The notes under the pieces are model-generated. The model searched no databases. It saw only the letters and a list, made by a program, of their open reading frames with translations, and was not told where the DNA came from. Below, piece by piece: positions 1,372 to 50,246 of a stretch of 64,000 nt of DNA. A program made the translations under genes and the position numbers. Position 1 is the first letter of the stretch. Each line of letters starts with the position of its first letter. Origin of the DNA: an uncultured Bacteroidia bacterium (GTDB lineage: Bacteria > Bacteroidota > Bacteroidia > NS11-12g > UBA9320); assembly GCA_943789165.1 (NCBI GenBank), contig CALSTB010000005.1, positions 527,001 to 591,000 on the forward strand, given 5' to 3'.

Positions 1372-1460
1372 GTATGGACTATGGTAAATGAAACATTAAA
1401 TGTTTGTTTATAAATCTGTAACTGAACTGTTGTAAGATCAAGGCTAAATCCTTTTTTTTC

Positions 1461-1516
1461 GCCAATCGCCAATCGCCAATCGCCAATCGCCAATCGCCAA
1501 TCGCCAATCGCTAACC
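1461..1516. repeat. Perfect 7-base tandem array (GCCAATC)7 plus one variant
   Basis: Seven exact copies of GCCAATC (GATTGGC on the minus strand) lie at 1461-1509, followed by the variant GCTAACC at 1510-1516. The stop codon TAG of the carbamoyltransferase (1511-1513) is formed inside the variant unit. The unit fits the NTTRGCN consensus seen around the four-helix-bundle genes at 25-27 kb. Confidence 0.95.
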
Positions 1517-19164: not shown

Positions 19165-20322
19165 TTATATTTTCGCCTTATAAACTAGTTCCAAAAATGT
19201 TTTTCCAAAAGCATTAACAACGTCATTATAATTATTTTGAACTGCTTTTGGATGGTTTAAATGTAATTTTTTTAATATAATTGAAAGTTCATGTGCGTCA
19301 TGTGGATCAAAGAAACTAACATTATCGTTTATCTGCTCTAAGTGTACTTCTAAGTTTGAAAGTACTAGGTGTTTTGATAATAATTTTGCATCTTCTACAA
19401 CTGTACTCCATCCTTCAAAGAGTGATGGTTGTATTACTGCTATTGCATTTTGCATGATACAGAGTTGCTCTTTACGTTCAATGAAACCAAGGAAAATAAC
19501 ATTTATTTCTAATCCACTAGTTTCATAATAATGTTTAAGTTCCTTAAAGTAATTAATATTTCTAAAATCATTTTCTTTTCCTGAAAAAGCAACTACAATT
19601 TCTTCGCCTTGCGTCTTAAGTTCTTTTATTGCATTAAGTATTACTTTGTGGTTTTTATGAGCCCAAAATTGATTGGGAGCAAAAAAGTAGTTTTCAGGTA
19701 GTTTATATTTTGTTCTTAGGGAAGTAATATCTTGATTTGAGAAATCGGGATGCGATACTGCAAAGTGCAGGACAAATTGCTTGACTTTTGATGTTGGGTA
19801 CAATTTCCTAAAATGAGAACGAGCATTTTCACTACTAAAAACTACATAATCACCCTTGCAAACAACTTCTTTTTGATATTTTTTTCTTTCTTGAATTTTA
19901 TCTTTGGAGAAGAATTGAGGTAAAAATTCTTCTTGAAAATCTGGTATCCAATTCACCTTTTTTAACCCATTAATTTGAATAGAATCATCTTCTGCAGGAT
20001 ATAAAAAATCGATTTTAGGTGGCACCGCCTTTCTGACTATAAGGTTTTTGTTAAATAAAATACGCCCCATTTTATTGATACCCCTTACATAAATTGAATA
20101 ATCATGCCTAATAGGGAATTTATAAAAACTCAGATAGGGATATTGTGTTTCAGCTTCAACGATATCTAAATTTTCTTCTTTCTCAGATAACACCACAACA
20201 TGTGGTTTTAAATCATCTTCGATTGTTTTTAGCGCATGTATAATGTTAAGAATATAATATGCGCCAGCAATCCAGTTTTCATCGTAAGAGAAGATAAGCC
20301 CTATTCTTGTTCTTTTAGCCAT
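19165..20322 (-). CDS. GT4-like glycosyltransferase
   Basis: 385 residues. IGLIFSYDENWIAGAYYILN at the N-terminus, FFAPNQFWAHKNHKVILNAI near residue 215 and VIQPSLFEGWSTVVEDAKLL near residue 300 (an EGWST-type donor motif) fit GT-B family 4. The start overlaps the upstream epimerase gene by 22 bases, the longest overlap in the locus, and indicates coupled translation. Confidence 0.87.
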   Translation of the reverse strand: MAKRTRIGLIFSYDENWIAGAYYILNIIHALKTIEDDLKPHVVVLSEKEENLDIVEAETQYPYLSFYKFPIRHDYSIYVRGINKMGRILFNKNLIVRKAVPPKIDFLYPAEDDSIQINGLKKVNWIPDFQEEFLPQFFSKDKIQERKKYQKEVVCKGDYVVFSSENARSHFRKLYPTSKVKQFVLHFAVSHPDFSNQDITSLRTKYKLPENYFFAPNQFWAHKNHKVILNAIKELKTQGEEIVVAFSGKENDFRNINYFKELKHYYETSGLEINVIFLGFIERKEQLCIMQNAIAVIQPSLFEGWSTVVEDAKLLSKHLVLSNLEVHLEQINDNVSFFDPHDAHELSIILKKLHLNHPKAVQNNYNDVVNAFGKTFLELVYKAKI

Positions 20323-21194
20323 TCCGTATATTTTTTTATTCCAATAGCTAAATTATATTTTGGTTCAAAACCATATATCTTCAGTTTTCCCATATCAGCA
20401 ATCCAATTATTGGGGTCGCCAACTTTGACTTCACCATTAAACACCACTTTCTTCTCAGAAGAAAATTCCTTTAGAAAAACTTGTGCTGCTTCAGCAATTG
20501 TGATTTCCTGATTGTTGGCAACATTGTAAATAGAACCTTGAAAAGGAGAATTTTGAATAACCAAATCTATAATTTGCAACAAATCATCGATATAAATAAA
20601 ATCTCTAGTTTCTTTTCCTGTTCCAAAAAGCGAAACTTCATCGTTTTTGAGAGCTTTTAGATATAAATCCCAAAACAATTGTTTTTTTAATCTTGGACCG
20701 TAAGCAGAGAAAACACGTAAACTACAAGTATTCAAACCAAAAAAATTATGATATTCTGTAAGCAGTAACTCGCTTTGCAATTTATGAAAACCATAAGGAG
20801 ACAGAGGTCTACAACTACTATGTTCTGTAATGGGCAAGCTTTGTGGATTTCCGTAAACCGCAGCACTCGAAAAATTGATTAACTTACAATCACTATTAAA
20901 ATCTCTTATTGCAACAAGTATTTTTTGAACATTAACTACATTTAATTCAAAATCCCTGGACGGATTTTCGAAGGAAAATCCTACATGAGCTGAACCCGAA
21001 GCATTGATACAAACGTCGAATCGATGTTCTTTGATTGGTAATGAGAAATCCGAATTCTGGCTTTCTATTTTATAAAAATTAGTCTCCAAAGATTCAGTCA
21101 CATCAGCTTGAAAAACTTCAAATCCTTTGGTTATAAAATACTTCACACAATGACTACCTATAAAACCGTTGGAACCTATAATTAAAATTTTCAT
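20301..21194 (-). CDS. NAD-dependent epimerase/dehydratase (extended SDR)
   Basis: 297 residues from the ATG at 21194, which forms an ATGA overlap with the upstream methyltransferase; an upstream in-frame start would add nine unlikely residues. ILIIGSNGFIGSHCVKYF is the glycine-rich NAD(P) motif, NFSSAAVYG the catalytic Ser region and YGFHKLQSE the YxxxK pair. It converts a nucleotide sugar, for example by 4-epimerisation or reduction; the exact product cannot be read off. Confidence 0.88.
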   Translation of the reverse strand: MKILIIGSNGFIGSHCVKYFITKGFEVFQADVTESLETNFYKIESQNSDFSLPIKEHRFDVCINASGSAHVGFSFENPSRDFELNVVNVQKILVAIRDFNSDCKLINFSSAAVYGNPQSLPITEHSSCRPLSPYGFHKLQSELLLTEYHNFFGLNTCSLRVFSAYGPRLKKQLFWDLYLKALKNDEVSLFGTGKETRDFIYIDDLLQIIDLVIQNSPFQGSIYNVANNQEITIAEAAQVFLKEFSSEKKVVFNGEVKVGDPNNWIADMGKLKIYGFEPKYNLAIGIKKYTEWLKEQE

Positions 21195-22093
21195 GTTGTT
21201 TGAATAAATTTCACACAACAAATAGCTCTACTATGAGCTGCAAAATCATCTTTCTTACCTATTTGAGTATGCGGATTAAATGACTCTGAGTCATTACATT
21301 CTTCTTGATTAGCAAAAATCCAACCATCCGGTAAATATTTAAAAAAAAATAATTCATATTTTCCTGAATTTTTCATTAAATCAGTGATTATCGCTACCAT
21401 CTCATCATCAAACTGTTGAAAAAATCCGTGATTTTCAAATTTACCATAAGGAAAAGTTAACAATAACTGTCCATCGCTTTTTAAAACTCTCAATAGTTCT
21501 TTAATAACTTTTACATATTCATAACTCTTATTTGAAACAAGTTCCAAAGTTGATTTCAAATCATAACCATACATTGAGTTATCCATATCAATATGCTCAA
21601 TCGTAGATTGGCAAACAATTTCTTCGAAAAAATTATCTCTAAAAGGTAAATCCCTTAAATCACCATAGACATATGATATTCTTTTATGATTGTAACTCTT
21701 GTCCTCTGGATAAAAAGTATAAATAAACTTTTCTTTATTTTGGATCAATTCATTATTCAATAAGTAGCCAAAATTGAATGTAGAACCTGCATCCAAAAAA
21801 ATGGTTTTACCTTTTTTAAGGTTAGCGAGAATCCAAGGATATTCTACAATTCTTTCATCTAAGCGATAACCATAGTTAGTTGGCACTTTTTTCTTGGTAA
21901 ATTCTTCTAAAATAGTAACATTTGAAATATTGTTTTTAATTGATTCTTCTTTATAATTATTATAACCTTCTGACCAAGGAATTTGACCGTTTTTAAAGAA
22001 TTTCAGTTTACTATTATTTTGAAGCTCTTTTACTTTTCGATCTTCATATTTCAAATAATAATTATACGCTTTTTTAAAGAGTTTTTTTATCAT
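21191..22093 (-). CDS. Class I SAM-dependent methyltransferase
   Basis: 300 residues. A basic, helical N-terminus (KKLFKKAYNYYLKYEDRK) precedes TIFLDAGSTFNFGYLLNNEL (SAM motif I, about residue 95) and VCQSTIEHIDMDNSMYGYD (near 163), where the HIDM motif suggests a Methyltransf_11-like fold. It follows the Wzt-type ATPase by about 22 bases. A polysaccharide-terminating or decorating methyltransferase next to an ABC exporter would be a familiar arrangement, but this role is inference. Confidence 0.78.
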   Translation of the reverse strand: MIKKLFKKAYNYYLKYEDRKVKELQNNSKLKFFKNGQIPWSEGYNNYKEESIKNNISNVTILEEFTKKKVPTNYGYRLDERIVEYPWILANLKKGKTIFLDAGSTFNFGYLLNNELIQNKEKFIYTFYPEDKSYNHKRISYVYGDLRDLPFRDNFFEEIVCQSTIEHIDMDNSMYGYDLKSTLELVSNKSYEYVKVIKELLRVLKSDGQLLLTFPYGKFENHGFFQQFDDEMVAIITDLMKNSGKYELFFFKYLPDGWIFANQEECNDSESFNPHTQIGKKDDFAAHSRAICCVKFIQTT

Positions 22094-22115
22094 TTTATAT
22101 TTTTAATAGATTATT

Positions 22116-23369
22116 TTATCTCGTTAAAATATAATTACTATCAATTATTACACATCCATAATCTGCACCTCCGTAAATATGAAAATCGGAACCTGTTTCC
22201 ACAATCTCAAAAGACAAACATTCTTCAAGAAATTCAATTACTTCAACATTGGGATGATGTATTGCAAAAGTAAGTTTGAATTTATTGGGTGCTAAAAACT
22301 TTTCTGGTAATTTTACTTCAAATTGATATACTCCTGCTTCGTTTATTTCGTCTTTCAATTTAATTTCAGAAGTGAAAATAATTCTTTCATTCCTATCTAT
22401 CACTCTAAAACCCAAATGGGCTTTCAGGTGTAGCTCTGCCACTTTTACTTTTATCTTTAGGGCAACGGGTTCATCAAACCCAAACTCTGTCCTAATAGCA
22501 TTGTCTTTATCCAAAAGAGCTACACTCACAAATCCAGATTCTCCAACAGTCTCATTTACATAATGCCCTACATAACCATCATATTGGTTGGATTGCAAAT
22601 AATAATCTATTGCGTTATTTGTGTTTCCATCTAACGCAACCTTACCCTTATCCAAAACAATTCCTTTAGTACACAAACTCTTTACTGCAGACATATTATG
22701 ACTCACAAACAAAACGGTTCTACCACTTTTAGCCACACTATCCATCTTACCTAAGCATCGCTTTTGAAATTCAAAATCGCCTACAGCTAATACTTCGTCA
22801 ATAATCAAAATTTCAGGCTCTAGGTGGGCCGCTACACTAAAACCAAGCCGTACCTTCATTCCACTGCTATAAAACTTTACGGGGGTGTCGATGTGCTGTT
22901 CCACTCCACTAAAGTCTACTATTTCATCAAACTTTTTGTCAATCTCCTTCTTAGTCATTCCTAAGATAGTGCCGTTCATGTACACATTATCCCTGCCTGT
23001 CAATTCTGGATGGAACCCTGTTCCCACTTCTAACAGAGAAGATACACGTCCTTTTATTTTAATACTTCCTGTTGTCGGTTCAGTAATACGACTAAGCACT
23101 TTTAGTAAAGTGCTTTTTCCTGCTCCGTTACGGCCTATGATCCCCAGTACTTCGCCCTGTTTCACCTCAAAATTAATGTCTTGTAACGCCCAGAACACGG
23201 AGGGGTCGTTTTCATTATCAAACTTCTTGAGTTGGGCAATACGTCTAAAATTACGTACCGGGTAGGTGATGACATTTTTTAGCTGCCCAGCAAAGGTGTC
23301 AGATTTTTCTTGCACTCCTATGCGGTAGCGTTTAGATACGTTTTCTACTTTAACTACGGTGTCGCTCAT
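22116..23369 (-). CDS. Polysaccharide ABC transporter ATPase, Wzt type
   Basis: 417 residues. Walker A GRNGAGKST is at 79-87, the signature YSSGMKVR at 167-174 and Walker B ILIIDEVLA at 187-195. The H-loop follows in FVSHNMSAV. Residues from about 260 to the end form a separate beta-rich domain like the Wzt C-terminal carbohydrate-binding domain, which recognises the finished chain in ABC-type O-antigen export. It works with the permease encoded next upstream; a repeat-filled gap of 166 bases separates the two. Confidence 0.93.
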   Translation of the reverse strand: MSDTVVKVENVSKRYRIGVQEKSDTFAGQLKNVITYPVRNFRRIAQLKKFDNENDPSVFWALQDINFEVKQGEVLGIIGRNGAGKSTLLKVLSRITEPTTGSIKIKGRVSSLLEVGTGFHPELTGRDNVYMNGTILGMTKKEIDKKFDEIVDFSGVEQHIDTPVKFYSSGMKVRLGFSVAAHLEPEILIIDEVLAVGDFEFQKRCLGKMDSVAKSGRTVLFVSHNMSAVKSLCTKGIVLDKGKVALDGNTNNAIDYYLQSNQYDGYVGHYVNETVGESGFVSVALLDKDNAIRTEFGFDEPVALKIKVKVAELHLKAHLGFRVIDRNERIIFTSEIKLKDEINEAGVYQFEVKLPEKFLAPNKFKLTFAIHHPNVEVIEFLEECLSFEIVETGSDFHIYGGADYGCVIIDSNYILTR

Positions 23370-23535
23370 TTAGGTTGTTGGGTTTGGGTCTTTGGTTATT
23401 TGGTAGTTAGCAGTTTACAGTTGGCGGGTTCGCAGAAATATTTGTCAGTATTTTTCGCAATAATGAATTTGTTCTTACTTATCCGTGATAGTATACAATG
23501 GATGCAATAAACTGTAAACTGACTACTGCTAACTG
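23370..23535. repeat. Inverted short-repeat arrays flanking about 85 bases
   Basis: On the plus strand 23370-23430 reads as 8-base steps such as TCTTTGGT, TATTTGGT, AGTTAGCA, then GTTTACAGTTGGCGG. The far side (about 23508-23540) holds the inverted form, with AAACTGTAAACTGACTACTGCTAACTG (split here: AAACTGTAAACTG then ACTACTGCTAACTG). The arms can pair into a long hairpin through AGTTAGCAGT and AGTTTACAGTT. The interior contains no recognisable gene. Confidence 0.75.
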
Positions 23536-24366
23536 TCACGCTATATCCGCTAAGGTATTTTCCATTTTTCTAAAGTAAAATGCTCCGAAGATGAAGAGGA
23601 TTAATGACACCGCAGCTCCTATGCTTATTAAATCCCATGGCATTGCTTTTGTGCCTAAAAATGCGGCACGCATTCCTTCTATAACCCCTACCATAGGGTT
23701 TAGAGCATATACATAAACCCATTTCTGCGGAATAATATTAATGCTATATACTACTGGTACAGAATACATAAGTATTCGAACCATAAATCCCATGGCATAC
23801 TGTACATCACGGTATTGAATGGCCATTGCAGACAAAATCATTCCTACACCAAGCGATGTCATGATGAGAATGATAAGTAAAACTGGGAAGTAAATAACAT
23901 TTATGGAAGGTACAAAGCCGTAATAAATAAATAACCCTATCATCACAATAAACGATATGCCAAAATCGATAAGTTTTGAAAAAACAGAAGCTAGAGGAAG
24001 TACCAATCTTGGAAAATATACTTTGGAGAGCATATCTTTATTGGCAATCAGAGCATTACTGCTTTCTGTTAAAATACTACTGAAATAATTCCAAGGTACC
24101 ATCGCTGCAAAACTGAAGAGAATGTAGGGTACTCCATCAGAATCTAACTTAGCCAGTGTTCCAAAAATAACGGTAAATACCAGTGTTTGCACCAGAGGTT
24201 GAATTACCGCCCATCCTATACCTAAGATTGATTGAGCATATTTTCCTTTTATACCACGTACTACTAAAAAATAGAGCAAATCTTTGTATCGCCAGAGTTC
24301 TTTTACATCTATAAGATGCCAGCCTTTGCTGGGTTCTATTATTTGAGAGTATTCTTGATCCTTCAT
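23536..24366 (-). CDS. Polysaccharide ABC transporter permease, Wzm type
   Basis: 276 residues with six predicted membrane segments of the ABC-2 type. The N-terminal HLIDVKELWRYKDLLYFLV and FGTLAKLDSDGVPYILFSF are typical of Wzm/TagG-like permeases, as is NPMVGVIEGMRAAFLG before the last two helices. It forms the membrane channel for export of an undecaprenyl-linked polysaccharide, powered by the neighbouring ATPase. Confidence 0.93.
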   Translation of the reverse strand: MKDQEYSQIIEPSKGWHLIDVKELWRYKDLLYFLVVRGIKGKYAQSILGIGWAVIQPLVQTLVFTVIFGTLAKLDSDGVPYILFSFAAMVPWNYFSSILTESSNALIANKDMLSKVYFPRLVLPLASVFSKLIDFGISFIVMIGLFIYYGFVPSINVIYFPVLLIILIMTSLGVGMILSAMAIQYRDVQYAMGFMVRILMYSVPVVYSINIIPQKWVYVYALNPMVGVIEGMRAAFLGTKAMPWDLISIGAAVSLILFIFGAFYFRKMENTLADIA

Positions 24367-24419
24367 TTAGTTTTGTATATAATCATTTATCTGTAACCTT
24401 TGAATTGGAGTAAGTATGA

Positions 24420-25349
24420 TTAGGCATTATCCATTTTATAAGCGTCATAGACTTCTTTTATTCCATGTCTAAGTCCTATCTTAGATTTCCAGCCTTTGGA
24501 TTTCAATAAAGAGCTATCCATCAACTTTCGCGGTGTTCCGTCGGGTTTTGCTGAGTTAAGCTTAAGCTGCCCAGTAAACCCTACTATTTCTTTTATGAGT
24601 AATGCGAGATCTCCAATACTTATCTCATCACCACTACCCACATTTAAAAACTGCCAATCATCATAGTTCTTCATAATAAATACACTGGCATCTGCCAAGT
24701 CATCCACATGCATAAACTCACGCAGCGGTTTTCCGCTGCCCCAAATTTCGACTTCGCCCAGCTCTTCCATCTTAGCTTCATGGAACTTTCTCAATAAGGC
24801 TGGTAAGACATGTGAGTTTTGAAGGTCGTAGTTGTCATTAGGCCCATATAAATTTGTAGGCATCACCGCTGTGAAATTACACCCATATTGACGTGCATAG
24901 TTTTCGACCATCTTAATCCCAGCGATTTTAGCAATGGCGTAGGGTTCGTTTGTTTCCTCCAATGGACCAGTTAATAAGTATTCCTCTTTCATTGGCTGGG
25001 GAGCCATTTTGGGGTAAATACAGGAAGACCCTAGAAACAGCAGTTTTTTAACATCGTGAACATAACTCTGATGAATCACATTGTTTTGAATCATCAAGTT
25101 ATCATACAAAAAGTCCGCGCGATAGATATTGTTTGCCTGTATGCCACCCACTTTGGCTGCTGCTAGGAATACGTATTCAGGTTTTTCTGTTTCGAAAAAA
25201 GCTTCGACTGCTTGCTGGTTACGTAAATCAAGTTCTTTGCTAGACCTTAAAACCAAGTTGTCAAAGCCTTCTTTCTTCAGTTCACGAACGATTGCTGATC
25301 CTACCATGCCGTTGTGACCTGCGACGTATATTTTAGAGGTGGTTTTCAT
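24420..25349 (-). CDS. fcl: GDP-L-fucose synthase
   Basis: 309 residues, normal length. [18 protein letters not shown] is the NADP-binding motif, [18 protein letters not shown] and YAIAKIAG (catalytic Tyr-Lys) are hallmarks of GDP-L-fucose synthase (GDP-4-keto-6-deoxymannose epimerase/reductase). Together with gmd at 25825-26946 it makes GDP-L-fucose from GDP-mannose. The two are usually adjacent, but here a decayed four-helix-bundle element of about 475 bases separates them. The start ATG lies six bases from a heptamer array. Confidence 0.95.
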
Positions 25350-25355
25350 AGGGGC

Positions 25356-25383
25356 GGTTGGCTTTTGGCGGTTAGCGATAGGT
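25356..25383. repeat. Heptamer array, left arm of the decayed S23 element
   Basis: Four consecutive 7-base units on the plus strand: GGTTGGC, TTTTGGC, GGTTAGC, GATAGGT. They are inverted relative to the array at 25780-25814, so the two bracket the S23 pseudogene. Confidence 0.85.
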
Positions 25384-25387
25384 GGTG

Positions 25388-25733
25388 CTTGACGTAATTA
25401 GGCGGTTGTTAAGCGCATTGAGTCTTTTTTGTATGATTTCCAAGTTTACAAAAATTTCTGAGTTGATAAAATATTTTCGGTTCATGGCTATAAGCAATTG
25501 AGTCTCTAATTCGAAACTTGACCCCAATGCGATTTGAACATACCTAGAGAATTCATTATCCGATTTTCTACTACACCGTCAGCAACATTCGAGGGTATTG
25601 ACACTGAACATCGCTGTAATTGTTGACCCAAACCTTACATCTCATTTTTCGGAAACTGATCCACAATATCATACACGTGATTTACCAGTTCGAAGCTTTG
25701 TTGCCGTACTTTCATTTTTCTGAAATTTCTCAT
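25388..25733 (-). pseudogene. Decayed four-helix-bundle (S23 family) gene
   Basis: Translated from ATG at 25733 it gives MRNFRKMKVRQQSFELVNHV, YDIVDQFPKNEM, a TAA stop, then GLGQQLQRCSVSIPSNVA, a clear paralogue of the intact gene at 27011-27361. A one-base loss just after SIPSNVA (GACGGTGT against GAAGGATGT in the intact copy) shifts the frame, and the rest is still recognisable in the shifted frame down to about 25388. It is flanked by inverted heptamer arrays exactly like the intact copy. Confidence 0.92.
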
Positions 25734-25779
25734 GTAAATGCAAATACGGCAAACGACGATTTAATTTATGTAAGGTAGT

Positions 25780-25814
25780 CTCCAACTGCTAAAAGCCAAT
25801 CGCTAACAGCTAAT
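25780..25814. repeat. Heptamer array, right arm of the decayed S23 element
   Basis: Five 7-base units in phase: CTCCAAC, TGCTAAA, AGCCAAT, CGCTAAC, AGCTAAT (NTTRGCN on the minus strand). The array begins 10 bases after the gmd stop codon. About 45 bases lie between it and the start of the S23 pseudogene, and that leader resembles the leader of the intact copy. Confidence 0.88.
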
Positions 25815-25824
25815 TGCCTTATTC

Positions 25825-26946
25825 TTACTTTTCCTCCTCCTTCGGCACAAAGGTAAACCCACTCGCATGTAAGGTTTGTTCTTTTCTGAATAGTTCTATA
25901 TCACTATCCATCATATCCTTTACCAAATCAGCTAAGCTATGTTTAGGGACCCAACCCAGTTGTTTTTTTGCTTTGGTAGCGTCTCCAATGAGTAGGTCGA
26001 CTTCAGTTGGACGATAATATTGTGGGTCGACAGCTAAAACGATTTGACCTTTAGGTACCTGGTAATCTTGATTGCTGCATTCAAGAACCTTTGCAATTTC
26101 GTTTGGACCTTGACCTATAAACTGCAATTTGACGCCTACTTCGTTAAAAGCCATTCTAACAAAATCTCTAACCGTTGTAGTTACGCCAGTGGCTATCACG
26201 TAATCCTCCGGCTTGTTTTGCTGGAGCATCATCCACATCAATTCGACATAATCCTTGGCATGACCCCAATCTCGCTTGGCGTCTAAGTTACCCAAGTAAA
26301 ACTTATCATGTAATCCTAGTGCGATACGAGATACTGCCCTAGTTATTTTACGGGTAACGAAGGTTTCTCCCCGAAGTGGACTTTCATGGTTGAATAGGAT
26401 ACCATTACAAGCGTACATGTCATACGCTTCTCTGTAATTTACGGTAATCCAAAAACCGTACATCTTGGCAACCGCATATGGAGAACGGGGATAGAACGGG
26501 GTCGTTTCCGATTGAGGGACTTCTTGAACCAAACCATACAATTCTGATGTGGATGCTTGATAAATTCTTGTTTTTTGCTCTAATCCTAATAATCTAACCG
26601 CCTCCAACACTCGCAGGGTCCCAACACCATCTACATCAGCCGTGTATTCCGGAGATTCGAAACTCACCTTGACATGGGACATGGCTCCTAGATTGTAGAT
26701 TTCATCCGGCTGGACTTCCTTAATGATTCGTATCAAATTGGTTGAGTCCGTCAAATCGCCGTAATGCAATATGAATTTTCGGTTATCGACGTGGGGATCC
26801 TGATATAGATGGTCTATTCGGTCGGTGTTGAACAACGAACTTCTTCGTTTAATACCATGAACAGTGTAACCTTTTTTTAACAAAAATTCTGAGAGGTATG
26901 ATCCGTCTTGTCCGGTGACTCCGGTGATGAGTGCAGTTTTTGACAT
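25825..26946 (-). CDS. gmd: GDP-mannose 4,6-dehydratase
   Basis: 373 residues, full length. [20 protein letters not shown] is the NADP site, [20 protein letters not shown] and YAVAKMYG hold the catalytic Ser/Glu/Tyr/Lys, and [20 protein letters not shown] is diagnostic of Gmd. It makes GDP-4-keto-6-deoxy-D-mannose, which Fcl turns into GDP-L-fucose. It lies between two S23 elements, so this biosynthetic pair has been interrupted twice. Confidence 0.97.
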
Positions 26947-26980
26947 GGGTGAAGTTATGAATATGGGATAATGATTTTGA

Positions 26981-27015
26981 TTTTGGCTGTTGGCTGTTGG
27001 CTGTTAGCTGTTAGC
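26981..27015. repeat. Heptamer array, left arm of the intact S23 element
   Basis: Five units in phase on the plus strand: TTTTGGC, TGTTGGC, TGTTGGC, TGTTAGC, TGTTAGC. The stop codon TAA of the four-helix-bundle gene (27011-27013) lies inside the last unit. The orientation is opposite to that of the array at 27414-27469. Confidence 0.92.
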
Positions 27016-27361
27016 AGGATGCAATCAAACGGTTATTAAGTGCATTGAGCTTTTTTTGCAATATTTCTAAGTTTTCAAATATTTCAGTGTTTATGAAATA
27101 TTTTCGGTTTGACGCTATAAGCAATTGTGTTTCTAATTCAAAACTCGAACCTAATGCAATTTGAATGTACCTAGAGAATTCTTTGTCTGATTTTCTACTA
27201 CATCCTTCAGCCACATTTGATGGTATTGAAACCGAACATCGTTGCACTTGTTGACTTAAACCGGATAGTTCACTTTTAGGAAAACAATCAACAATGTCGT
27301 ACACATTATTTAACAATTGCATGCTAAGATGCCACACTTCTAGATTCCGGAAATTCCTCAT
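27011..27361 (-). CDS. Four-helix-bundle protein (23S rRNA intervening-sequence/S23 family)
   Basis: 116 residues. NLEVWHLSMQLLNNVYDIV, QVQRCSVSIPSNVAEGCSRK and FSRYIQIALGSSFELETQLL are the three hallmark segments of the S23/TIGR02436 family (SIPxNIAEG core). Known relatives are encoded in intervening sequences of 23S rRNA, or act as Avd, the accessory protein of diversity-generating retroelements; standalone copies have no settled function. It has no evident link with polysaccharide synthesis, yet lies between wzz-like and gmd genes. Inverted arrays of a 7-base unit flank it on both sides, and a decayed paralogue with the same flanks lies 1.6 kb away. I infer a small mobile unit. Confidence 0.93.
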   Translation of the reverse strand: MRNFRNLEVWHLSMQLLNNVYDIVDCFPKSELSGLSQQVQRCSVSIPSNVAEGCSRKSDKEFSRYIQIALGSSFELETQLLIASNRKYFINTEIFENLEILQKKLNALNNRLIASC

Positions 27362-27413
27362 TAACCTGCAAATTGGTCAATGTAGAATTATATTCATTTA
27401 TGAAATCTCCTGC

Positions 27414-27469
27414 AGCTAATAGCCAACCACCAATCGCTAACCGCCAAAGGCTAAACGCCAATCGCCAAA
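27414..27469. repeat. Heptamer array, right arm of the intact S23 element
   Basis: Eight 7-base units in perfect phase on the plus strand: AGCTAAT, AGCCAAC, CACCAAT, CGCTAAC, CGCCAAA, GGCTAAA, CGCCAAT, CGCCAAA. On the minus strand the consensus is NTTRGCN. The array enters the coding region of the Wzz-like gene and supplies its last five codons and its stop. Confidence 0.95.
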
Positions 27470-28533
27470 CGTTCCTCCTGAAGCTTCTCCACCAACCAAT
27501 GTCTTCCAATGAAGAAGGCCATCGACAACAAACCACCCAATATACCGCCAACAATTAAAGCCCTCATCCGTGACTTACCTGTAGGTTGAAAAGGACCCAG
27601 CGGTCTGTCAATTACTTGGAAATAAGGTGTGGCACTGCTCAGTAAAAACTCAGCGCGCTCTTGGTTTTTTATGGCTTCTCCGTACATAATGTACAGCATC
27701 TCGACCTTACGGGCTAATTGTTGCCTAGGAAGTTTATTGGTGCTTAGTATAATGCTCTTTCCTTGGTCTTGGAATCGTGCTAATTGTTGTTCCGCAGCTC
27801 TTAGCTCAACGAAAATGGAGTCTGCTTTGTTACGGACATGCTCATAAGTGGCTTTTTGCTTTTCAATGGTGTTGGATATGTAAAACTCACTTAAAACGTC
27901 ATACAGGCTGTTCGCTAGTGCAATACTGAGTTCAGGTACCGTAGTTTTTCCGACTATTTTTAAAAAGGAGCTTTCATCGTCATAATCAATGCTTACCAAG
28001 CCTTCTACACCATTACTAGGATCACCTTTGAGTTTTTTTGATAAGAGTAAAATTGCGAGTTCCTGCTGAGATGGGTACATTGAGTCTCTACTGACTTGGA
28101 AACGAAATCCGGTCAGATCAATATTTCCATTCTTTGAAGTCAATGGGATTTCCAATATATCCATGAGGTGATTCCCTAGATAATCATATTTCCCATTTAT
28201 TTGGACTCCATAGGTCAAGGCTTTTCCTAAAATCAATCGAGAAGTTGCTAGTTGACTGATTTTCTCATAGTTGTGACCCGCTTTAGATCCACCAAATCCA
28301 AGCTCACCTAGAACCGCACCAATGCCACCCACACCACCACCATCATCTTCATTGATGACAAAGGTTAACGGAGCACTATATTTTTTAGGAGTAAGCCATG
28401 CATTGGTCACCATGATGGCCGACAACAAAAACGCGCCAAGAATAACCCACCATTTGTTTCGCCAAATAACAGACCAATACGTCTTAACCAACTTTAAAAC
28501 TTCAGAAATCTGTAAAGACTTATTTTCTTCCAT
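27451..28533 (-). CDS. Wzz-like chain-length/polysaccharide co-polymerase protein
   Basis: 360 residues. One membrane helix at about 27-48 (WWVILGAFLLSAIMVTNAWL), a long periplasmic coiled-coil region and a second helix at about 330-348 preceded by the proline-rich PLGPFQPTGKSR give the Wzz/GNVR topology. There is no C-terminal tyrosine-kinase domain, so it is not a fused Wzc. It would set chain length or connect with the Wza-like protein encoded just upstream (1-base gap). The last residues LAIGV are encoded by a heptamer array, so the natural C-terminus was probably altered by insertion. Confidence 0.88.
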   Translation of the reverse strand: MEENKSLQISEVLKLVKTYWSVIWRNKWWVILGAFLLSAIMVTNAWLTPKKYSAPLTFVINEDDGGGVGGIGAVLGELGFGGSKAGHNYEKISQLATSRLILGKALTYGVQINGKYDYLGNHLMDILEIPLTSKNGNIDLTGFRFQVSRDSMYPSQQELAILLLSKKLKGDPSNGVEGLVSIDYDDESSFLKIVGKTTVPELSIALANSLYDVLSEFYISNTIEKQKATYEHVRNKADSIFVELRAAEQQLARFQDQGKSIILSTNKLPRQQLARKVEMLYIMYGEAIKNQERAEFLLSSATPYFQVIDRPLGPFQPTGKSRMRALIVGGILGGLLSMAFFIGRHWLVEKLQEERLAIGV

Positions 28534-28534
28534 T

Positions 28535-31435
28535 TTATTTCGTGCCGTTTACAACCGTGATAATTGTTTGTGTCGTGAGCATGATGGACGTAGTGATGGC
28601 AGTAATCGCATTCAATTCTGTCATTCGTTCCAACAAACTTTTCTTGTCATTCACATCGATACCATTTTTCGACTTCTTGTCTTTGAGGCCAAAGTGTATT
28701 TCAGATCCCCGTTTGACCTTTGGATACCTGTGAATCCATAAAAACTTTCGTGTTTTCTTTACACGACCGTTAGCATACGTCACGGTTGTTTTTTTGCGTT
28801 TTGCATCTTTACTATAACCTCCTGCATATTGATTGACGTACCACTTCGCCCTTCGATTAAAGTAATTGACTACAATGTTCAATTCGTTTCCACCAGTACG
28901 ATTTGCAATATAAAAGGAGTCCGCATTTGTTCCCAATTTGTCGATTTGAACAATGTCGATGAGTTTAGGAACTGTAATGACATCACCTTCCTTGACCGCA
29001 ATGTTAAACCGAGAATCATACGGTCTTTTGTCCAATAAATCCATTCTAGTGACCACATAACCAATGTTGTCATATCCTCTATAGAAAGTTCCACCTTCTG
29101 GGAAAGCCTCAACTGTGTAACCTCCGGCTCGCTCTATAATGCTGCTTAATCGCTCATTTGGCTTCATGATGGCGTAGATACCTGGATATTGAACCTGACC
29201 GTTGATGGTAACGTATTTAATAGGTTCAAAATTAGGAGTTGTCCGAACCACTATGTGGTCATATGGTTTAATTTCAAAAGGAATATTGTCTTGTAACGCG
29301 TTTAACTCATGGTCGATTTCTATAGTTGCGGCATACGTCTCTGTGGCTTCGTTATTTTCAACCTTAAGTCTGAAGATGTCAATTTTGTTACTGGCGGCTT
29401 CCATTTTTAAACCACCTGCCATAACCAAGATATCTTTAAAGGACAAAGTAGAATCATAGACGTATTGTCCAGGACTTCTTACGGCGCCTGAAATTTGAAC
29501 ATAGTATTGATCCATGTAACTCGTTGTACTTGGCACAACAATTCGGTCATTTGGGTGGATGACAATGTTTGCTGGAGATTCAGGGTTTTTAAAGGCTGTT
29601 TTTAAATCAACAACATGATATTCTCGTTTTAATGGTTGACCTGGAGGCGAAGAAATGACATACCCAAAATTCGTAGCTTGCCCTTGAAAGCCTCTTGACA
29701 TCATTATCGCATCGTATAAGGTGATTGATTTTGACGGATCCCAAAAATGTTGTCCGCCACTTCTTACAGCTCCAGAAATAGTAAAACTATAATTGTCAAC
29801 AAATTGTGATTTGGAATAAAGTACAATCCTATCTTCATGTTGTAGCGTAATATTCTTTACAGATGTTGGGTCGGCCAATACATCCTCGACATATACTCGC
29901 TTTAATTGGAAGGTCCCATCTACGTTTTTTCGGGTCAAGTATGCCATTTGGTTAAATGACTCTTTTTCTAAGCGCGCTTTCTCAAGTACGTCGGATAGTT
30001 TCATACCGGCCATCAATTCAAAGTTTCCCGGATGCCTTACCGCACCACTAATACTCACGTAATTATCAAATTGTTTTAGACTGCTGTGAAATATCAATCG
30101 GTCACCATCCTTTAGTGACAGCTTTGCTGCTTCAATGTCAGCCAAGCTATAATCTTTAATCGCCTGTTCTCCATTTATCGTGTACACATGTTGTACGAGT
30201 CCCCCATAAATATTGGTAGCATATCCGCCTGCCCAACGCACGGCTTCCTTATAGTTTTCATCTGTTTTTAGTTCGTAAGTCGCACCACGTCGAATTCCGC
30301 CACCGCTTATTGATACGCGTTTCTCAAACTTAGGGATATAAATAAGGTCATTGTTGCTCAAGTAGAAATCATATTGCTTTTTAGGGTCAATCATGAATTC
30401 ATACACATCTAAGATTCTTTTTTTACCTGACGATCGAATTTCAATATTCCTTAAGCTAGCTTCCGCGCTTGGACCACCCGCAGCAATAATCGCATTTAAA
30501 GCAGTATTGAGGGCAGATATCGTATAACTCCCAGGCTGATTCACTTCTCCAAATATGTTGACTGTAATTGTTCTGGCAGTATGAAGCGTTACTTCAAATT
30601 GTCCTGGACTAAACACATGGCTTTGCTGAAAACGGCCTAGTAGCAGGGCTTTAGCCTTTTTCAAGGAAACACCTCTCAAATAAATTTTTGCTATTCCACG
30701 AGGACGAATAAATCCGTCATCTTGAATTTCGTACAATAGGTCGGTTTGCGAAGCACCGAATATGTTAATGGCAATTTTATCGCCTACATCTAAGACATAA
30801 CTGTCAGGAGTGGTGGTAGAAGAAGTGGTTCTATACACATCCAAAGATTTGTTAAAGAACACATCCATTCCATAGACGCTGCTCTGCGCCGAGTATTGAT
30901 TTTGTTCTTCTTCCGTCAGTACGTCATAGATGGCTTCGTCTAAAGTCGCTCCTTGTTTCATTCTGCGAATCACTTCGTCAGCAGACTTACGACTCAGCAT
31001 TTTCGTTTTGTTTTGAGCCTCTGATTCAATAGAGTCACTTGTCAAATCCTTAATGGGCTCTTGAAATTCACGACTAGGTTGCACTTTGGAAGAAACAACT
31101 TGCTCCTTTGCGGGTGCAGTGGCAGCTTGATTAGGAGAAGTAGATGGTTCGGTTTCATCCGAATTAGATGCGTCTTCACTTTCTTCATCAGCCTGTTCTT
31201 GTTGAATCTCATCAACAATAGATCGGATTTCCGCTTCCAATGTAGATAATTGGTCTGGTTGGATATTATCCAAATCAATACCTTTTGCTCGCAAGCGACG
31301 TTTTACTTCGTCTTGTTCTACACCTGCATCTGCCAAGGCAGCTTGTGCAGCTTCAATCTGATCTTGCTGATATACTTGAGATTTCACAACCGTGAAACTC
31401 ATGAGTAATACCAGTATGTGTAACAATCTATTCAT
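28535..31435 (-). CDS. SLBB-domain polysaccharide export protein (Wza-like)
   Basis: 966 residues from the ATG at 31435, which gives a clean signal peptide (LLHILVLLMSFTVVKSQ) and an 8-base overlap with the upstream epimerase. Residues about 60-140 are acidic and low in complexity. A Poly_export domain follows near 200-280 (VLDVGDKIAINIFG). Six SLBB units follow, each with a core such as VNIFGEVNQPGSYT, ISGAVRHPGNFEL, ISGAVRSGGQHFW, ISGAVRSPGQYVY, INGQVQYPGIYAI. A hydrophobic segment (AITTSIMLTTQTIITVV) ends the protein and could be the outer-membrane helix of a Wza-like channel. Its length is far above that of E. coli Wza but common in Bacteroidota. Confidence 0.92.
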   Translation of the reverse strand: MNRLLHILVLLMSFTVVKSQVYQQDQIEAAQAALADAGVEQDEVKRRLRAKGIDLDNIQPDQLSTLEAEIRSIVDEIQQEQADEESEDASNSDETEPSTSPNQAATAPAKEQVVSSKVQPSREFQEPIKDLTSDSIESEAQNKTKMLSRKSADEVIRRMKQGATLDEAIYDVLTEEEQNQYSAQSSVYGMDVFFNKSLDVYRTTSSTTTPDSYVLDVGDKIAINIFGASQTDLLYEIQDDGFIRPRGIAKIYLRGVSLKKAKALLLGRFQQSHVFSPGQFEVTLHTARTITVNIFGEVNQPGSYTISALNTALNAIIAAGGPSAEASLRNIEIRSSGKKRILDVYEFMIDPKKQYDFYLSNNDLIYIPKFEKRVSISGGGIRRGATYELKTDENYKEAVRWAGGYATNIYGGLVQHVYTINGEQAIKDYSLADIEAAKLSLKDGDRLIFHSSLKQFDNYVSISGAVRHPGNFELMAGMKLSDVLEKARLEKESFNQMAYLTRKNVDGTFQLKRVYVEDVLADPTSVKNITLQHEDRIVLYSKSQFVDNYSFTISGAVRSGGQHFWDPSKSITLYDAIMMSRGFQGQATNFGYVISSPPGQPLKREYHVVDLKTAFKNPESPANIVIHPNDRIVVPSTTSYMDQYYVQISGAVRSPGQYVYDSTLSFKDILVMAGGLKMEAASNKIDIFRLKVENNEATETYAATIEIDHELNALQDNIPFEIKPYDHIVVRTTPNFEPIKYVTINGQVQYPGIYAIMKPNERLSSIIERAGGYTVEAFPEGGTFYRGYDNIGYVVTRMDLLDKRPYDSRFNIAVKEGDVITVPKLIDIVQIDKLGTNADSFYIANRTGGNELNIVVNYFNRRAKWYVNQYAGGYSKDAKRKKTTVTYANGRVKKTRKFLWIHRYPKVKRGSEIHFGLKDKKSKNGIDVNDKKSLLERMTELNAITAITTSIMLTTQTIITVVNGTK

Positions 31436-32489
31436 GGGATTGTAATGCTTTTGTTTCAATGTTGTGATACGTTTTATACCACTCAAAAAATGCTTTTAAT
31501 CCACTTTCTAGTGGGGTAGCGTATTCAAAGTGTAACAACTGTTTAATTTTTGAAGAATCAGCATAAGTTTCATAAACGTCGCCTGGTTGCATCGGTAAAT
31601 TGACCTTTTGTGCTTCTTTTCCTGTTATTTTTTCTATCAAAGATATAAAATCTAATAGCTTAACAGGGGATTGGTTACCAATGTTGTATACTTCATATTG
31701 AGTATTGTTATCCGGATTAGAAGCATGTAACCTGTTCTCAACCAACAAGGCGAGGTTGTCAACTATATCATCGATATAAGTGAAGTCCCGTCTTAAATCT
31801 CCGTTGTTAAAGACTTTGATTTCTTCACCCTTCATGATTTTATTAAAAAAACCATAAACTGCCATATCTGGTCTGCCCCACGGTCCGTACACTGTAAAAA
31901 AACGTAGCAAGGATGTATCTATACGATATTGATGGGCATAGTAGTGCGCTAAAATCTCAGTACTTTTCTTAGTGGCAGCATACAACGATACAGGGGCATC
32001 CGTGTTTTGATCTTCTGTATAAGGTGTATTCTTTGAATGTCCATAAACAGAACTACTCGAAGCCATCAATAATTTCGTATTGGGATGCTTCTTGACCTGT
32101 TCTAATAGGTTGAAGGTGGCAGTTAAGTTTGATTTAAAATAAATCTCTGGATGCGTTATAGACATACGTACACCAGGCTGTGCCGCCAAATGAACAACGG
32201 CATCGAATTGGATATTGTCAAACACTTCTTTAGCGTTTGCTAGGTCTGACAAATCTGCTTTGCGAAAATGAATGGTATTGTCAGCATTTGATTCCCATTC
32301 ATTTAGTTCGCCATCATGACCCAAACCTAGGTCTTTTAGCCTGTCAAGTTTTAAGCGAACGGTGTAATAATCGTTTAGATTGTCAACGCCATAAACGTCA
32401 TAACCCGTTACACTTAATTTTTTAGCTAAATGATAGCCAATAAAACCAGCGATACCTGTTATGAGTATTTTAGGTTTAGAGTCTGCCAT
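31428..32489 (-). CDS. UDP-glucuronate 4-epimerase-like SDR enzyme
   Basis: 353 residues. ILITGIAGFIGYHLAKKL is the NAD motif, MASSSSVYG the Ser region and YAATKKSTE the YxxxK pair. RFFTVYGPWGRPDMAVYGF and DLRRDFTYIDDIV are characteristic of UDP-glucuronate 4-epimerases (CapI/LspL group). It would convert UDP-glucuronate, made by the dehydrogenase encoded upstream, into UDP-galacturonate. If that dehydrogenase acts on UDP-GlcNAc the substrate would be the N-acetyl form. It overlaps its upstream neighbour by 14 bases. Confidence 0.9.
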   Translation of the reverse strand: MADSKPKILITGIAGFIGYHLAKKLSVTGYDVYGVDNLNDYYTVRLKLDRLKDLGLGHDGELNEWESNADNTIHFRKADLSDLANAKEVFDNIQFDAVVHLAAQPGVRMSITHPEIYFKSNLTATFNLLEQVKKHPNTKLLMASSSSVYGHSKNTPYTEDQNTDAPVSLYAATKKSTEILAHYYAHQYRIDTSLLRFFTVYGPWGRPDMAVYGFFNKIMKGEEIKVFNNGDLRRDFTYIDDIVDNLALLVENRLHASNPDNNTQYEVYNIGNQSPVKLLDFISLIEKITGKEAQKVNLPMQPGDVYETYADSSKIKQLLHFEYATPLESGLKAFFEWYKTYHNIETKALQSHE

Positions 32490-33774
32490 CTACTTCAGTT
32501 TTATCCATAATCGCTTTTACGTCATAAATGACAGCATTGCTTTCCTTTATTGCTTTGAAGTCTATGGACTCAAATTCCTTATGAGAAACCGCCAACACAA
32601 TCGCTTTAAATTTCTTATTGGGCAGATTTTTGACGATCTCAACTCCATACTCAGCTTTCACTTCATCGTAGTTGGCCCATGGATCGTAAACCGTCACATT
32701 TCCACCGAAGCCTTTTAGTTCATCGATAATATCAATAACCCTTGAGTTTCTAATATCTGGGCAGTTTTCCTTAAACGTCATACCAAGTACCAACATGTCT
32801 GAATCTTTAATCGCTATGTTTTTAGCAATCATTAGTTTAATGACTTTATTGGCGACAAAGGCACCAATGCGTTCATTGACTCTTCGTCCAGACTTAATGA
32901 CTTCTGGATAGTAACCCAATTGCTCGGCTTTGTGCACCATGTAATATGGGTCGACACCAATGCAGTGACCTCCTACAAGGCCAGGTCTGTATTTAAGGAA
33001 ATTCCATTTGGTACTAGCAGCTTCAATAACATCGTTGGTGTCGATGCCAACTCTATCGAATATCAATGCTAGCTCATTTACGAAGGAGATGTTTAAATCA
33101 CGTTGACAGTTCTCTACAACTTTAGCAGCTTCAGCCACTTTCATGGAAGGTGCCATATATGTCCCAGCCGTAATGATAGACTTGTATAATTGGTCAACTT
33201 TAATCGCGATGTCGGGAGTTGATCCTGAAGTTATTTTTTGAATTTTGGTAAGCGTATTGATTTTATCTCCTGGATTAATCCGTTCTGGGGAATAACCACA
33301 AAAGAAATCTTTGTTAAACGTCAAACCACTTCCTTTTTCCAATTCAGGCACACATATCTCCTCAGTACATCCTGGGAATGTAGTAGATTCATAAATGACA
33401 ATGTCTCCATCCTTTAAAAACTTGGAAACAGCCCGGCTAGAAATAATTAATGGATTTAAATCTGGTTTTTTAAATTCATCGATAGGAGTAGGAACGGTAA
33501 CAATATACATATTCGCTCCTGAAATGTCTGATTCATTGGCTGAGCAAAAGAGTCCCTTCTCATCTGGGACCTGGTTCACTAACACATTAGTTAGTTCTTT
33601 GCTTTCAACTTCTAATGTGTGGTCAGAACCACCCATTAATTCTGCAACTCGCGTTGCGTTAATGTCAAAGCCAATGACAGGATACTGCTTGGCAAATTCT
33701 AATGCTAAAGGTAGGCCAACGTAGCCTAAACCAATAACAGCGATACGTGTGTTTGGAAGAGTAGTAGTGCTCAC
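32476..33774 (-). CDS. Nucleotide-sugar dehydrogenase (UDP-GlcNAc/UDP-glucose 6-dehydrogenase type)
   Basis: 432 residues. IAVIGLGYVGLPLALEFAKQ is the NAD site, and YRPGLVGGHCIGVDPYY holds the catalytic Cys that is oxidised through a thioester. The pattern is closest to the TviB/WbpO-type UDP-N-acetylhexosamine dehydrogenases. I start it at GTG 33774 (STTTLPNTRIAVIGLG), since the longer frame from GTG 33819 adds 15 unlikely residues and would include the presumed leader. It is the first gene of the long polysaccharide operon, with a promoter about 75 bases upstream. Confidence 0.92.
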   Translation of the reverse strand: MSTTTLPNTRIAVIGLGYVGLPLALEFAKQYPVIGFDINATRVAELMGGSDHTLEVESKELTNVLVNQVPDEKGLFCSANESDISGANMYIVTVPTPIDEFKKPDLNPLIISSRAVSKFLKDGDIVIYESTTFPGCTEEICVPELEKGSGLTFNKDFFCGYSPERINPGDKINTLTKIQKITSGSTPDIAIKVDQLYKSIITAGTYMAPSMKVAEAAKVVENCQRDLNISFVNELALIFDRVGIDTNDVIEAASTKWNFLKYRPGLVGGHCIGVDPYYMVHKAEQLGYYPEVIKSGRRVNERIGAFVANKVIKLMIAKNIAIKDSDMLVLGMTFKENCPDIRNSRVIDIIDELKGFGGNVTVYDPWANYDEVKAEYGVEIVKNLPNKKFKAIVLAVSHKEFESIDFKAIKESNAVIYDVKAIMDKTEVDGRL

Positions 33775-33845
33775 TGAAAAGATATTTAGTGACTGTGGTG
33801 CATGGCTTCGCCACTTCACTCACAGGGTGATTTTTGAATAAGTCA

Positions 33846-33876
33846 CAAAGTTAGGCGGCGATAATCGGTTTCCGAA
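33846..33876 (-). promoter_or_regulatory. Putative Bacteroidota-type promoter of the polysaccharide operon
   Basis: On the minus strand the sequence shows TTCG, 19 bases, then TAACTTTG, close to the TTTG-N19-TAnnTTTG consensus of the main sigma factor in this phylum. It lies about 72 bases upstream of the first gene, leaving a leader of some 65 bases. No other strong promoter was seen for the next 30 kb. Confidence 0.55.
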
Positions 33877-33943
33877 GCCTTTTAAGGGTTTTTTTGAACA
33901 GAAGGCTAACAATTTAAAATACTGATAATTAATTCTTTGACAC

Positions 33944-33976
33944 AAAAAAACCGCAAGAATTTTCTTGCGGTTTTTT
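33944..33976 (-). terminator. Rho-independent terminator after the peptide transporter
   Basis: A near-perfect hairpin with arms ACCGCAAGAA and TTCTTGCGGT, flanked by A and T runs, so it can act in both directions. It ends transcription of the PTR-type transporter and insulates the polysaccharide operon promoter that follows. Confidence 0.88.
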
Positions 33977-34040
33977 GATGTGTGAATGGTAAATACACCA
34001 TTGCTAAATCCACATATTATTTATTTTTTATGCGACACCT

Positions 34041-49400: not shown

Positions 49401-50210
49401 CGTTCCTATAGACGATTTTATTGGTGTACAAGTAAATCCAGTCCTCCGTCTTTTTCATTTTTCCTTCTCTTCGGAGCGAGCTCCAATCGGAGTAAATAAA
49501 CCGAAACAACACGACGAACACGAGTAAGTTTGAGAGTCAGTTTGAGTTTGAAAATGAGTCTTTCGTACTCAAACTCCAACTGCAACTCACACTGGAATTT
49601 GCTTGAGGTCTCGAGCGGATTGCTCCGCGTTCCGATGGACGATTTTATTGGTGTACAAGTAAATCCAGTCTACCTGTCGGTAGCCTCAGTCTTTTTCATT
49701 TTTCCTTCTCTTCGGAGCGAGCTCCAATCGTTGTAAATAAACCGAAACAACACGACCAACAAGAGTAAGTTTGAGTGTCAGTTTGAGTTTGAGAATGAGT
49801 CTTTCGTACTCACACTCCAACTGCAACTCACACTGGAATTTGAATGAGGTATCGAGCGGATTGCTCCGCGTTCCGATGGACGATTTTATTGGTGTACAAG
49901 TAAATCCAGTCTACCTGTCGGTAGCCTCAGTCTTTTTCATTTTTCCTTCTCTTCGGAGCGAGCTCCAATCGAAGTAAATAAACCAAAACAACACGACCAA
50001 CACGAGTACGTTTGAGTTTAAGTTTGAGAATGAGACTTTCGTACTCACACTCCAACTGCAACTCACACTGGAGTTTGCTTGAGGTCTCGAGCGGATTGCT
50101 CCGCGTTCCGATGGACGATTTTATTGGTGTACAAGTAAATCCAGTCTACCTGTCGGTAGCCTCCGTCTTTTTCATTTTTCCTTCTCTTCGGAGCGAGCTC
50201 CAATCGAAGT
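49401..50210. repeat. Tandem repeat of about 227-241 bases, 3.5 copies, at the 3' side of tRNA-Cys
   Basis: Units start at CGTTCC in 49401, 49628, 49869 and 50104 (spacing 227, 241, 235). Each full unit holds a block ACGATTTTATTGGTGTACAA, a small hairpin CTACCTGTCGGTAG (absent from the first), a GGAGCGAGCTCC palindromic part, a hexamer-based hairpin with GAGTTTGAGTTTGA and CTCAAACTCCAACTG-like arms, and 20 bases identical or nearly so to the 3' end of the tRNA-Cys region (49602-49621, 49843-49862, 50078-50097). Short open frames across the units are products of repetition, not genes. Confidence 0.95.
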
Positions 50211-50246
50211 AAAAACAAAAAATCCCGACCAGTTTGGTCAGGATTT
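50211..50246 (-). terminator. Rho-independent terminator of tRNA-Cys
   Basis: On the minus strand AATCCTGACC-AAACT-GGTCGGGATT is followed by TTTTTTGTTTTT. It lies six bases after the tRNA 3' end. Confidence 0.9.

What the first reader, a model, noticed from the sequence alone, without database searches (positions are those of the whole stretch)
26981..27469. Four-helix-bundle (S23/Avd-like) gene bracketed by inverted arrays of a 7-base unit
Seen: the 116-residue S23 gene at 27011-27361 has eight units of consensus NTTRGCN in perfect phase upstream (27414-27469) and five units in the opposite orientation downstream (26981-27015). The stop codon is made by the downstream array. Known: S23-family proteins are encoded in rRNA intervening sequences or serve as Avd in diversity-generating retroelements; standalone copies lack a known role. 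Inference: gene plus inverted heptamer arrays is a small mobile or amplifying element in which the protein or its RNA recognises the arrays, comparable in logic to REP sequences and their RAYT transposases. I do not know a described system with this layout.
Basis: partly seen in the sequence, partly recalled or inferred. Interest (0 to 1): 0.88.

Follow-up and report, generated by a model that had tools for sequence, protein, structure and literature searches.

The report
S23 genes bracketed by heptamer arrays
A small protein gene of unknown function (S23) sits, here and in many unrelated bacteria and archaea, inside a roughly 0.4-0.6 kb mobile cassette whose two ends are mirror-image tandem arrays of a 7-base unit, which links two unexplained features: standalone S23 genes and the 7-base repeats scattered through many bacterial genomes.

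Summary
The S23 gene (27011-27361, -) has 5 TTRGCNN units downstream and 8 inverted units upstream. A second, broken S23 (25423-25727) in the same gene cluster is bracketed the same way. It is not local: among 252 S23 genes (host family, its phylum, plasmids, named contigs of many phyla including archaea) 65% have matching inverted flanks, against 1.9% of 104 control ORFs (p=7e-33). The period is 7; 106 different heptamers share a weak YAG core, and the heptamer is inherited with the protein, between phyla too. Occupied and empty sites exist (G033 has both host junctions empty; cyanobacterial plasmids differ by the cassette). Gene-less inverted-array elements also insert; one disrupts an S23 gene. 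S23 is under purifying selection (median dN/dS 0.13). AGT-type heptamer arrays occur in 168/193 S23+ and 12/54 S23- genomes of the phylum. Best reading: a new class of small mobile element, REP/RAYT-like in logic with an unrelated protein; the 23S rRNA IVS may be a specialised cousin. Shown: cassette, presence/absence, protein-heptamer linkage. Inferred: S23 binds the arrays and drives spread. Catalysis is unknown; about half of carrier genomes lack a detectable reverse transcriptase.

The parts
27011..27361 (-). intact S23 (PF05635) gene, 116 aa
   Evidence: similar in sequence to solved 2gsc
26983..27017 (+). downstream array, 5 units TTRGCNN, contains the S23 stop codon
27413..27468 (-). 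upstream array, 8 units TTRGCNN, inverted relative to the downstream array
25423..25727 (-). second S23 copy, broken (stop and frame change)
25358..25378 (+). downstream array of the second S23 copy, 3 units
25779..25813 (-). upstream array of the second S23 copy, 5 units (4 exact)
27451..28533 (-). wzz-like gene; its last codons and stop lie in the upstream array
   Evidence: (Wzz 24.5 bits, just under the Pfam cut-off of 25.5)
25825..26946 (-). gmd (GDP-mannose 4,6-dehydratase), between the two S23 cassettes
24420..25349 (-). fcl-like epimerase gene, beyond the second cassette
1459..1514 (-). solo array of 8 units (TTGGCGA type), no S23 beside it; possible non-autonomous footprint

Best explanation
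The feature is one copy of a widespread small mobile element. The unit is about 0.4-0.6 kb: an S23 gene between two tandem arrays (typically 4-5 units) of a 7-base unit in mutually inverted orientation, with the G-richer strand upstream of the gene. It inserts between genes, often inside operons, with little damage because the arrays can supply stop codons and abut the next start. Shown: the unit and its approximate boundaries, its presence/absence at otherwise matching sites, gene-less versions with the same arrays, purifying selection on S23, and inheritance of one heptamer with one protein lineage. Inferred: the S23 oligomer (pentameric in the solved relative, per PMC4990558) binds its own heptamer arrays and promotes copying or insertion of array-bracketed DNA, in cis and in trans, which would also seed solo arrays. 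I know of no nuclease motif in S23, so DNA breakage would be done by a host or other enzyme. The 23S rRNA intervening sequence with its S23 ORF may be the same kind of element lodged in an rRNA gene.
For: Inverted flank match in 164/252 S23 genes vs 2/104 control ORFs, Fisher p=7e-33, and vs 2-5% for mispaired flanks. Period 7 (14, some 8 and 6) and almost no other period. Heptamer similarity tracks protein identity, including pairs between the host phylum and cyanobacteria. Shared DNA between unrelated contexts is confined to a 380-600 bp unit ending near the arrays. Occupied vs empty sites: G033 vs the window, Nostoc plasmid operon and PCC 7003 vs 7002, Trichormus vs N. carneum at 97% identity. 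Gene-less inverted-array inserts, one inside an S23 gene. dN/dS median 0.13 in 37 pairs. AGT-type heptamer arrays in 168/193 S23+ vs 12/54 S23- genomes, p=2e-19. Common YAG core above null. Coxiella IVS has tandem heptamers upstream of its S23 ORF (PMC4990558).
Against: No constant target-site duplication: TTCTA and GTAAT repeats at two sites, none at the N6 insertion. About 35% of S23 genes did not pass the inverted-match threshold, though some have arrays on one side. No binding or transposition was shown. The host genome has two Y1_Tnp genes, so another enzyme could do the moving. The genome-level association is not corrected for phylogeny, and G131 has many arrays without a detected S23. 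Some absences could be losses rather than sites never occupied.
Confidence: 0.65

Rival explanations
1. S23 is a passenger or maintenance gene inside a MITE-like element. The inverted heptamer arrays are moved by another enzyme (for example a Y1/REP-type transposase or an IS transposase), and S23 does something else.
For: Gene-less elements with the same arrays exist. Two Y1_Tnp genes in the host genome. I know of no catalytic motif in S23. G131 has many AGT-type arrays but no detected S23.
Against: The same protein family is bracketed in many phyla; the heptamer is inherited with the S23 protein; arrays are rare in S23-negative genomes; S23 is conserved by selection. No other gene was seen to take this place, though I did not search systematically for one.
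Confidence: 0.2
2. An RNA-level element like the 23S rRNA IVS: the arms pair in the transcript, S23 binds this RNA, and spread goes through RNA and a reverse transcriptase, as with Avd in diversity-generating retroelements.
For: S23 ORFs occur in 23S rRNA IVS with inverted repeats, and Coxiella's has heptamers (PMC4990558). The arms of the window element pair in the predicted RNA fold (z -2.05). Consistent strand asymmetry: G over C upstream in 95% of paired elements.
Against: No RT in the host genome (genome 87.7% complete); 102 of 193 S23+ genomes have no detected RT and the association is not significant. Arm mismatches show no sense-strand G-U bias (114 vs 127). No Rfam family, rRNA included, around the window element or in 20 other S23 loci.
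Confidence: 0.1
3. The arrays are cis-regulatory parts of the S23 gene (ribosome-binding or attenuator hairpin), not ends of a mobile element.
For: In several cyanobacterial copies the upstream heptamers contain an AGGAG-like Shine-Dalgarno sequence close to the S23 start. Array-to-gene distances are short (medians 45 and 65 bases).
Against: The whole cassette is present or absent at matching sites; gene-less inverted-array inserts exist; about 100 unrelated-looking heptamers.
Confidence: 0.04
4. Ordinary simple-sequence repeats made by polymerase slippage that happen to lie near S23 genes.
For: Heptameric simple repeats are over-represented in some bacterial genomes and slippage has been suggested as the cause (PMC4692102). 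18% of control ORF flanks reach the period-7 threshold.
Against: Slippage does not make two mutually inverted arrays on either side of one gene family: 65% vs 1.9%. Mispaired flanks do not match.
Confidence: 0.01

Closest known systems
23S rRNA intervening sequences (IVS) with an S23 ORF (Coxiella, Leptospira)
   Same: Same protein family in a short element with inverted repeats; the Coxiella IVS has tandem heptamers (GACAGAT) upstream of the ORF, and IVSs have been proposed to be transposition remnants or mobile (PMC4990558).
   Different: The window element lies between polysaccharide genes, not in rRNA. The arms are tandem heptamer arrays, a different unit in each lineage.
REP/REPIN sequences with RAYT (TnpA-REP) transposases
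   Same: Logic: one small protein gene flanked by inverted copies of a short sequence that is also dispersed without the gene (REP/RAYT description from own knowledge).
   Different: S23 is a four-helix-bundle family unrelated to Y1 transposases, the unit is a tandem heptamer rather than a palindrome, and units differ between lineages.
Heptameric repeats: STRR of cyanobacteria, GGGAATC/GGGGA(C/T)T of Xanthomonas and Nostoc, TAACTGA of Beggiatoaceae
   Same: Tandem 7-base units, intergenic; a four-unit preference and some inverted pairs in Xanthomonas (PMC4692102); TAACTGA arrays also in some Cyanobacteria and Bacteroidetes (PMC4679880).
   Different: I found no paper linking them to S23 genes or describing the S23 cassette. 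I did not show that those particular repeats belong to S23 elements.
Avd of diversity-generating retroelements
   Same: Related four-helix-bundle fold (own knowledge).
   Different: No reverse transcriptase in this genome. I did not look for template/variable repeats.

Membership tests
S23 / 23S_rRNA_IVP protein family (PF05635) | whole-protein match over the curated cut-off | tested here: met
   108.4 bits against a cut-off of 33.8
23S rRNA intervening sequence | located inside a 23S rRNA gene | tested here: not met
   flanked by wzz-like and gmd genes; no Rfam match in window 20000-34000
23S rRNA intervening sequence | excised from the precursor by RNase III | not testable with these tools
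   needs RNA experiments
REP/RAYT system | gene encodes a Y1 (HUH) transposase | tested here: not met
   only PF05635 found in the protein
REP/RAYT system | gene flanked by inverted copies of a short repeat also dispersed in the genome | tested here: met
   general for S23 genes
Diversity-generating retroelement | reverse transcriptase present | tested here: not met
   no PF00078 match in the host genome; genome 87.7% complete
Classical IS / TIR transposon | inverted terminal repeats | tested here: met
   inverted heptamer arrays
Classical IS / TIR transposon | encoded transposase | tested here: not met
   no transposase family in the S23 protein
Classical IS / TIR transposon | constant-length target-site duplication | tested here: inconclusive
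   direct repeats TTCTA and GTAAT at two sites, none at the Nostoc N6 insertion

The most novel reading that the evidence does not exclude
S23 proteins are sequence-specific recognition proteins of a previously unrecognised class of mobile element spanning bacteria and archaea. Each protein lineage recognises its own 7-base unit, and the heptameric repeats (STRR, GGGAATC and others) scattered through many bacterial genomes are the non-autonomous footprints of these elements.
Probability: 0.5. Interest if true: 0.95.

Novelty: categorically new. Interest (0 to 1): 0.9.

Why it matters
S23/four-helix-bundle genes are found in a large share of genomes (193 of 247 in this phylum) with no known role outside rRNA IVS and Avd. 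Heptameric intergenic repeats are abundant in Xanthomonas, Nostoc and others, and a 2015 study states that their function remains to be elucidated (PMC4692102). The link between the two offers one hypothesis for both and makes it testable: one small protein, one 7-base unit per lineage. If S23 proteins read distinct heptamers, they would be a naturally diversified set of short-repeat recognition proteins.

Tried and rejected
(1) RNA-stem selection: no G-U bias in the arms; the RNA fold is only mildly better than shuffles (z -2.05). (2) RT dependence: rejected as a general requirement. (3) TTRGC-only view: this motif is found at few S23 genes, and only a generic period-7 plus inverted-match test showed the generality. 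(4) A constant target-site duplication could not be fixed. (5) search for related loci with the diverse alignment A1 failed. (6) S23 close to this one in phages: none at E<=1e-5. (8) A survey centred on a betaproteobacterial locus, meant to reach Xanthomonas and check its S23 against GGGAATC arrays, was not possible. (9) Pairs L246/L248/L258 were not used as evidence of transfer, because their flanks are also homologous. (10) Literature searches for S23 with heptamer arrays found no paper making the link; only open-access PMC was searched.

Full report
OBSERVATION. The S23 gene 27011-27361 (-) is a clear PF05635 member related to the solved XCC0516 protein 2gsc. TTRGCNN arrays lie at 26983-27017 (+, 5 units) and 27413-27468 (-, 8 units). 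None of 1000 dinucleotide shuffles of the surrounding 2.5 kb gave an array of 4 or more units. The S23 stop codon lies in the downstream array, and the wzz-like gene's stop in the upstream one. A second S23 (25423-25727, -), broken by a stop and a frame change, lies between gmd and fcl and is bracketed the same way (25358-25378 +, 25779-25813 -).

GENERALITY. The host genome has about nine S23 genes, and 193 of 247 genomes of its phylum have at least one. I compared the 250 bases upstream of each S23 gene with the reverse complement of the 250 bases downstream (ungapped local match). Score 14 or more was reached by 67% of 84 genes from the host family, 94% of 16 genes on plasmids (mostly cyanobacterial), 58% of 69 from the wider phylum and 64% of 83 from named contigs of many phyla including archaea. 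Flanks paired at random between genes gave 2-5%, and the direct orientation 9-27%. Of 104 control ORFs in the same loci, at least 700 bp from any S23, 2 passed, against 164/252 S23 genes (Fisher p=7e-33). The threshold of 14 was chosen after a first look at 90 of these genes; the wider-phylum and named-contig sets are independent of that look. The flank period is 7 (and 14, with a minority of 8 and 6); periods 4, 5, 9, 10 and 11 are near zero. A plain period-7 array is less specific, as 18% of control ORFs reach that threshold; the inverted match is the discriminating feature. Arrays are mostly 4-5 units long.

UNIT AND HEPTAMERS. There are 106 distinct heptamers (rotation-collapsed) among 128 arrays, sharing a weak YAG core (1.84 bits over background; null maximum 1.51). 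In 95% of paired elements the upstream arm has more G than C. Heptamer similarity tracks protein identity: mean cosine 0.77 at 70% identity or more, 0.32 at 60-70%, about 0.1 below. This includes pairs between groups, such as L216 (host phylum) with L145/L148/L153 (Nostoc-type cyanobacteria), which share TCAGGAG/TCAGAAG at 65-70% protein identity. Where related S23 genes sit in unrelated contexts, DNA similarity ends near the arrays: L145/L153 419 bp, L257/L307 425 bp, L268/L307 378 bp, L301/L315 598 bp. S23 is under purifying selection (median dN/dS 0.13, 37 pairs, not all independent).

MOBILITY. In G033 (same genus) both the wzz-gmd and gmd-fcl junctions are only a few bases long and empty, whereas the window has S23 in both and G032 has an S23 with arrays in the gap after gmd. 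A Nostoc plasmid operon is occupied in L145, L161 and L162 and empty in L158 and L163-L166. The next gap holds a different S23 with a different heptamer in L158 only. PCC 7003 has S23 between cmr2 and cmr3, PCC 7002 does not. Trichormus variabilis (L153) and Nostoc carneum (L325), 97% identical around the site, differ by the cassette, which is flanked by GTAAT repeats in the occupied one. In the N6 plasmid (L161) the S23 gene itself is interrupted by a gene-less insert with inverted CAGGAGT-type arrays and no target duplication longer than 1 bp; more gene-less inserts with other cores lie nearby in L162 and L164. In the host genome about 30 further TTRGC array loci exist, almost all single-orientation.

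GENOME-LEVEL LINK. AGT-type heptamer arrays (AGTN4 x4) occur in 168/193 S23-positive and 12/54 S23-negative genomes (p=2e-19). Within genera, g61 (G150, G173 vs G064, G181) and g87 (G138 vs G142) show the contrast. This is not phylogeny-corrected, and G131 is a strong exception. The tool's reversed-pattern count is not a clean null, because it also catches other heptamer arrays.

MECHANISM. Shown: a discrete S23-encoding cassette with inverted heptamer arms that is present or absent at matching sites, and gene-less relatives. Inferred: S23 recognises its heptamer and promotes spread. An RNA-stem or RT route is less likely: no sense G-U bias, no RT in the host genome, none detected in 102 of 193 S23+ genomes and no significant association. 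The host has two Y1_Tnp genes, so a borrowed transposase is not excluded.

KNOWN BACKGROUND. The Coxiella 23S IVS is described as a 428-nt selfish element with an S23 ORF; it carries tandem GACAGAT heptamers upstream of the ORF, and the paper recalls proposals that IVSs are transposition remnants or mobile elements (PMC4990558). Rehm et al. 2015 describe GGGAATC/GGGGA(C/T)T heptamers in Xanthomonas and Nostoc, preferring four units, with no function found and no mention of S23 (PMC4692102). MacGregor 2015 describes TAACTGA arrays (PMC4679880). None of my searches found the S23-heptamer link stated, but bioRxiv and most subscription journals were not searchable. I call it categorically new because no described class of mobile element combines this protein family with inverted tandem-heptamer arms; a stricter reader could call it a free-standing variant of the IVS.

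LIMITS. One genome per species limits junction analysis. Some loci are MAG contigs, so organism labels may be wrong.

Noticed in passing
window 49443-50213 and 52461-52851: Two long tandem repeats (241-bp unit x3.2 and 155-bp unit x2.5) whose units contain runs of a shorter GAGTTT/CTCAAA-type repeat.
   Followed up: no
L143 and L150 (Pseudanabaena and Anabaena plasmids): In both, an S23 cassette sits at the same place in a type I-D CRISPR operon, between cas6 and cas4, but with different heptamers.
   Followed up: partly
G131 and G187 (phylum set): G131 has 281 matches to the AGT-heptamer pattern but no detected S23; G187 has 238 with a single S23. Possible array expansion after loss or divergence of S23.
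   Followed up: no
L301 and L315: Contigs labelled ANME-1 and Methanomicrobiales (archaea) share a closely related S23 (dN/dS 0.08) over a 598-bp stretch with an 8-base array unit; suggests transfer between archaeal lineages.
   Followed up: partly
L045 4005-4096 and 8463-8547 (host genome): Two tight hairpins of inverted TTRGC arrays with loops of about 8 bases and no gene, REPIN-like in layout.
   Followed up: partly
window 1459-1514: Eight-unit TTGGCGA-type array at the end of a 576-aa ORF, with no S23 near.
   Followed up: partly
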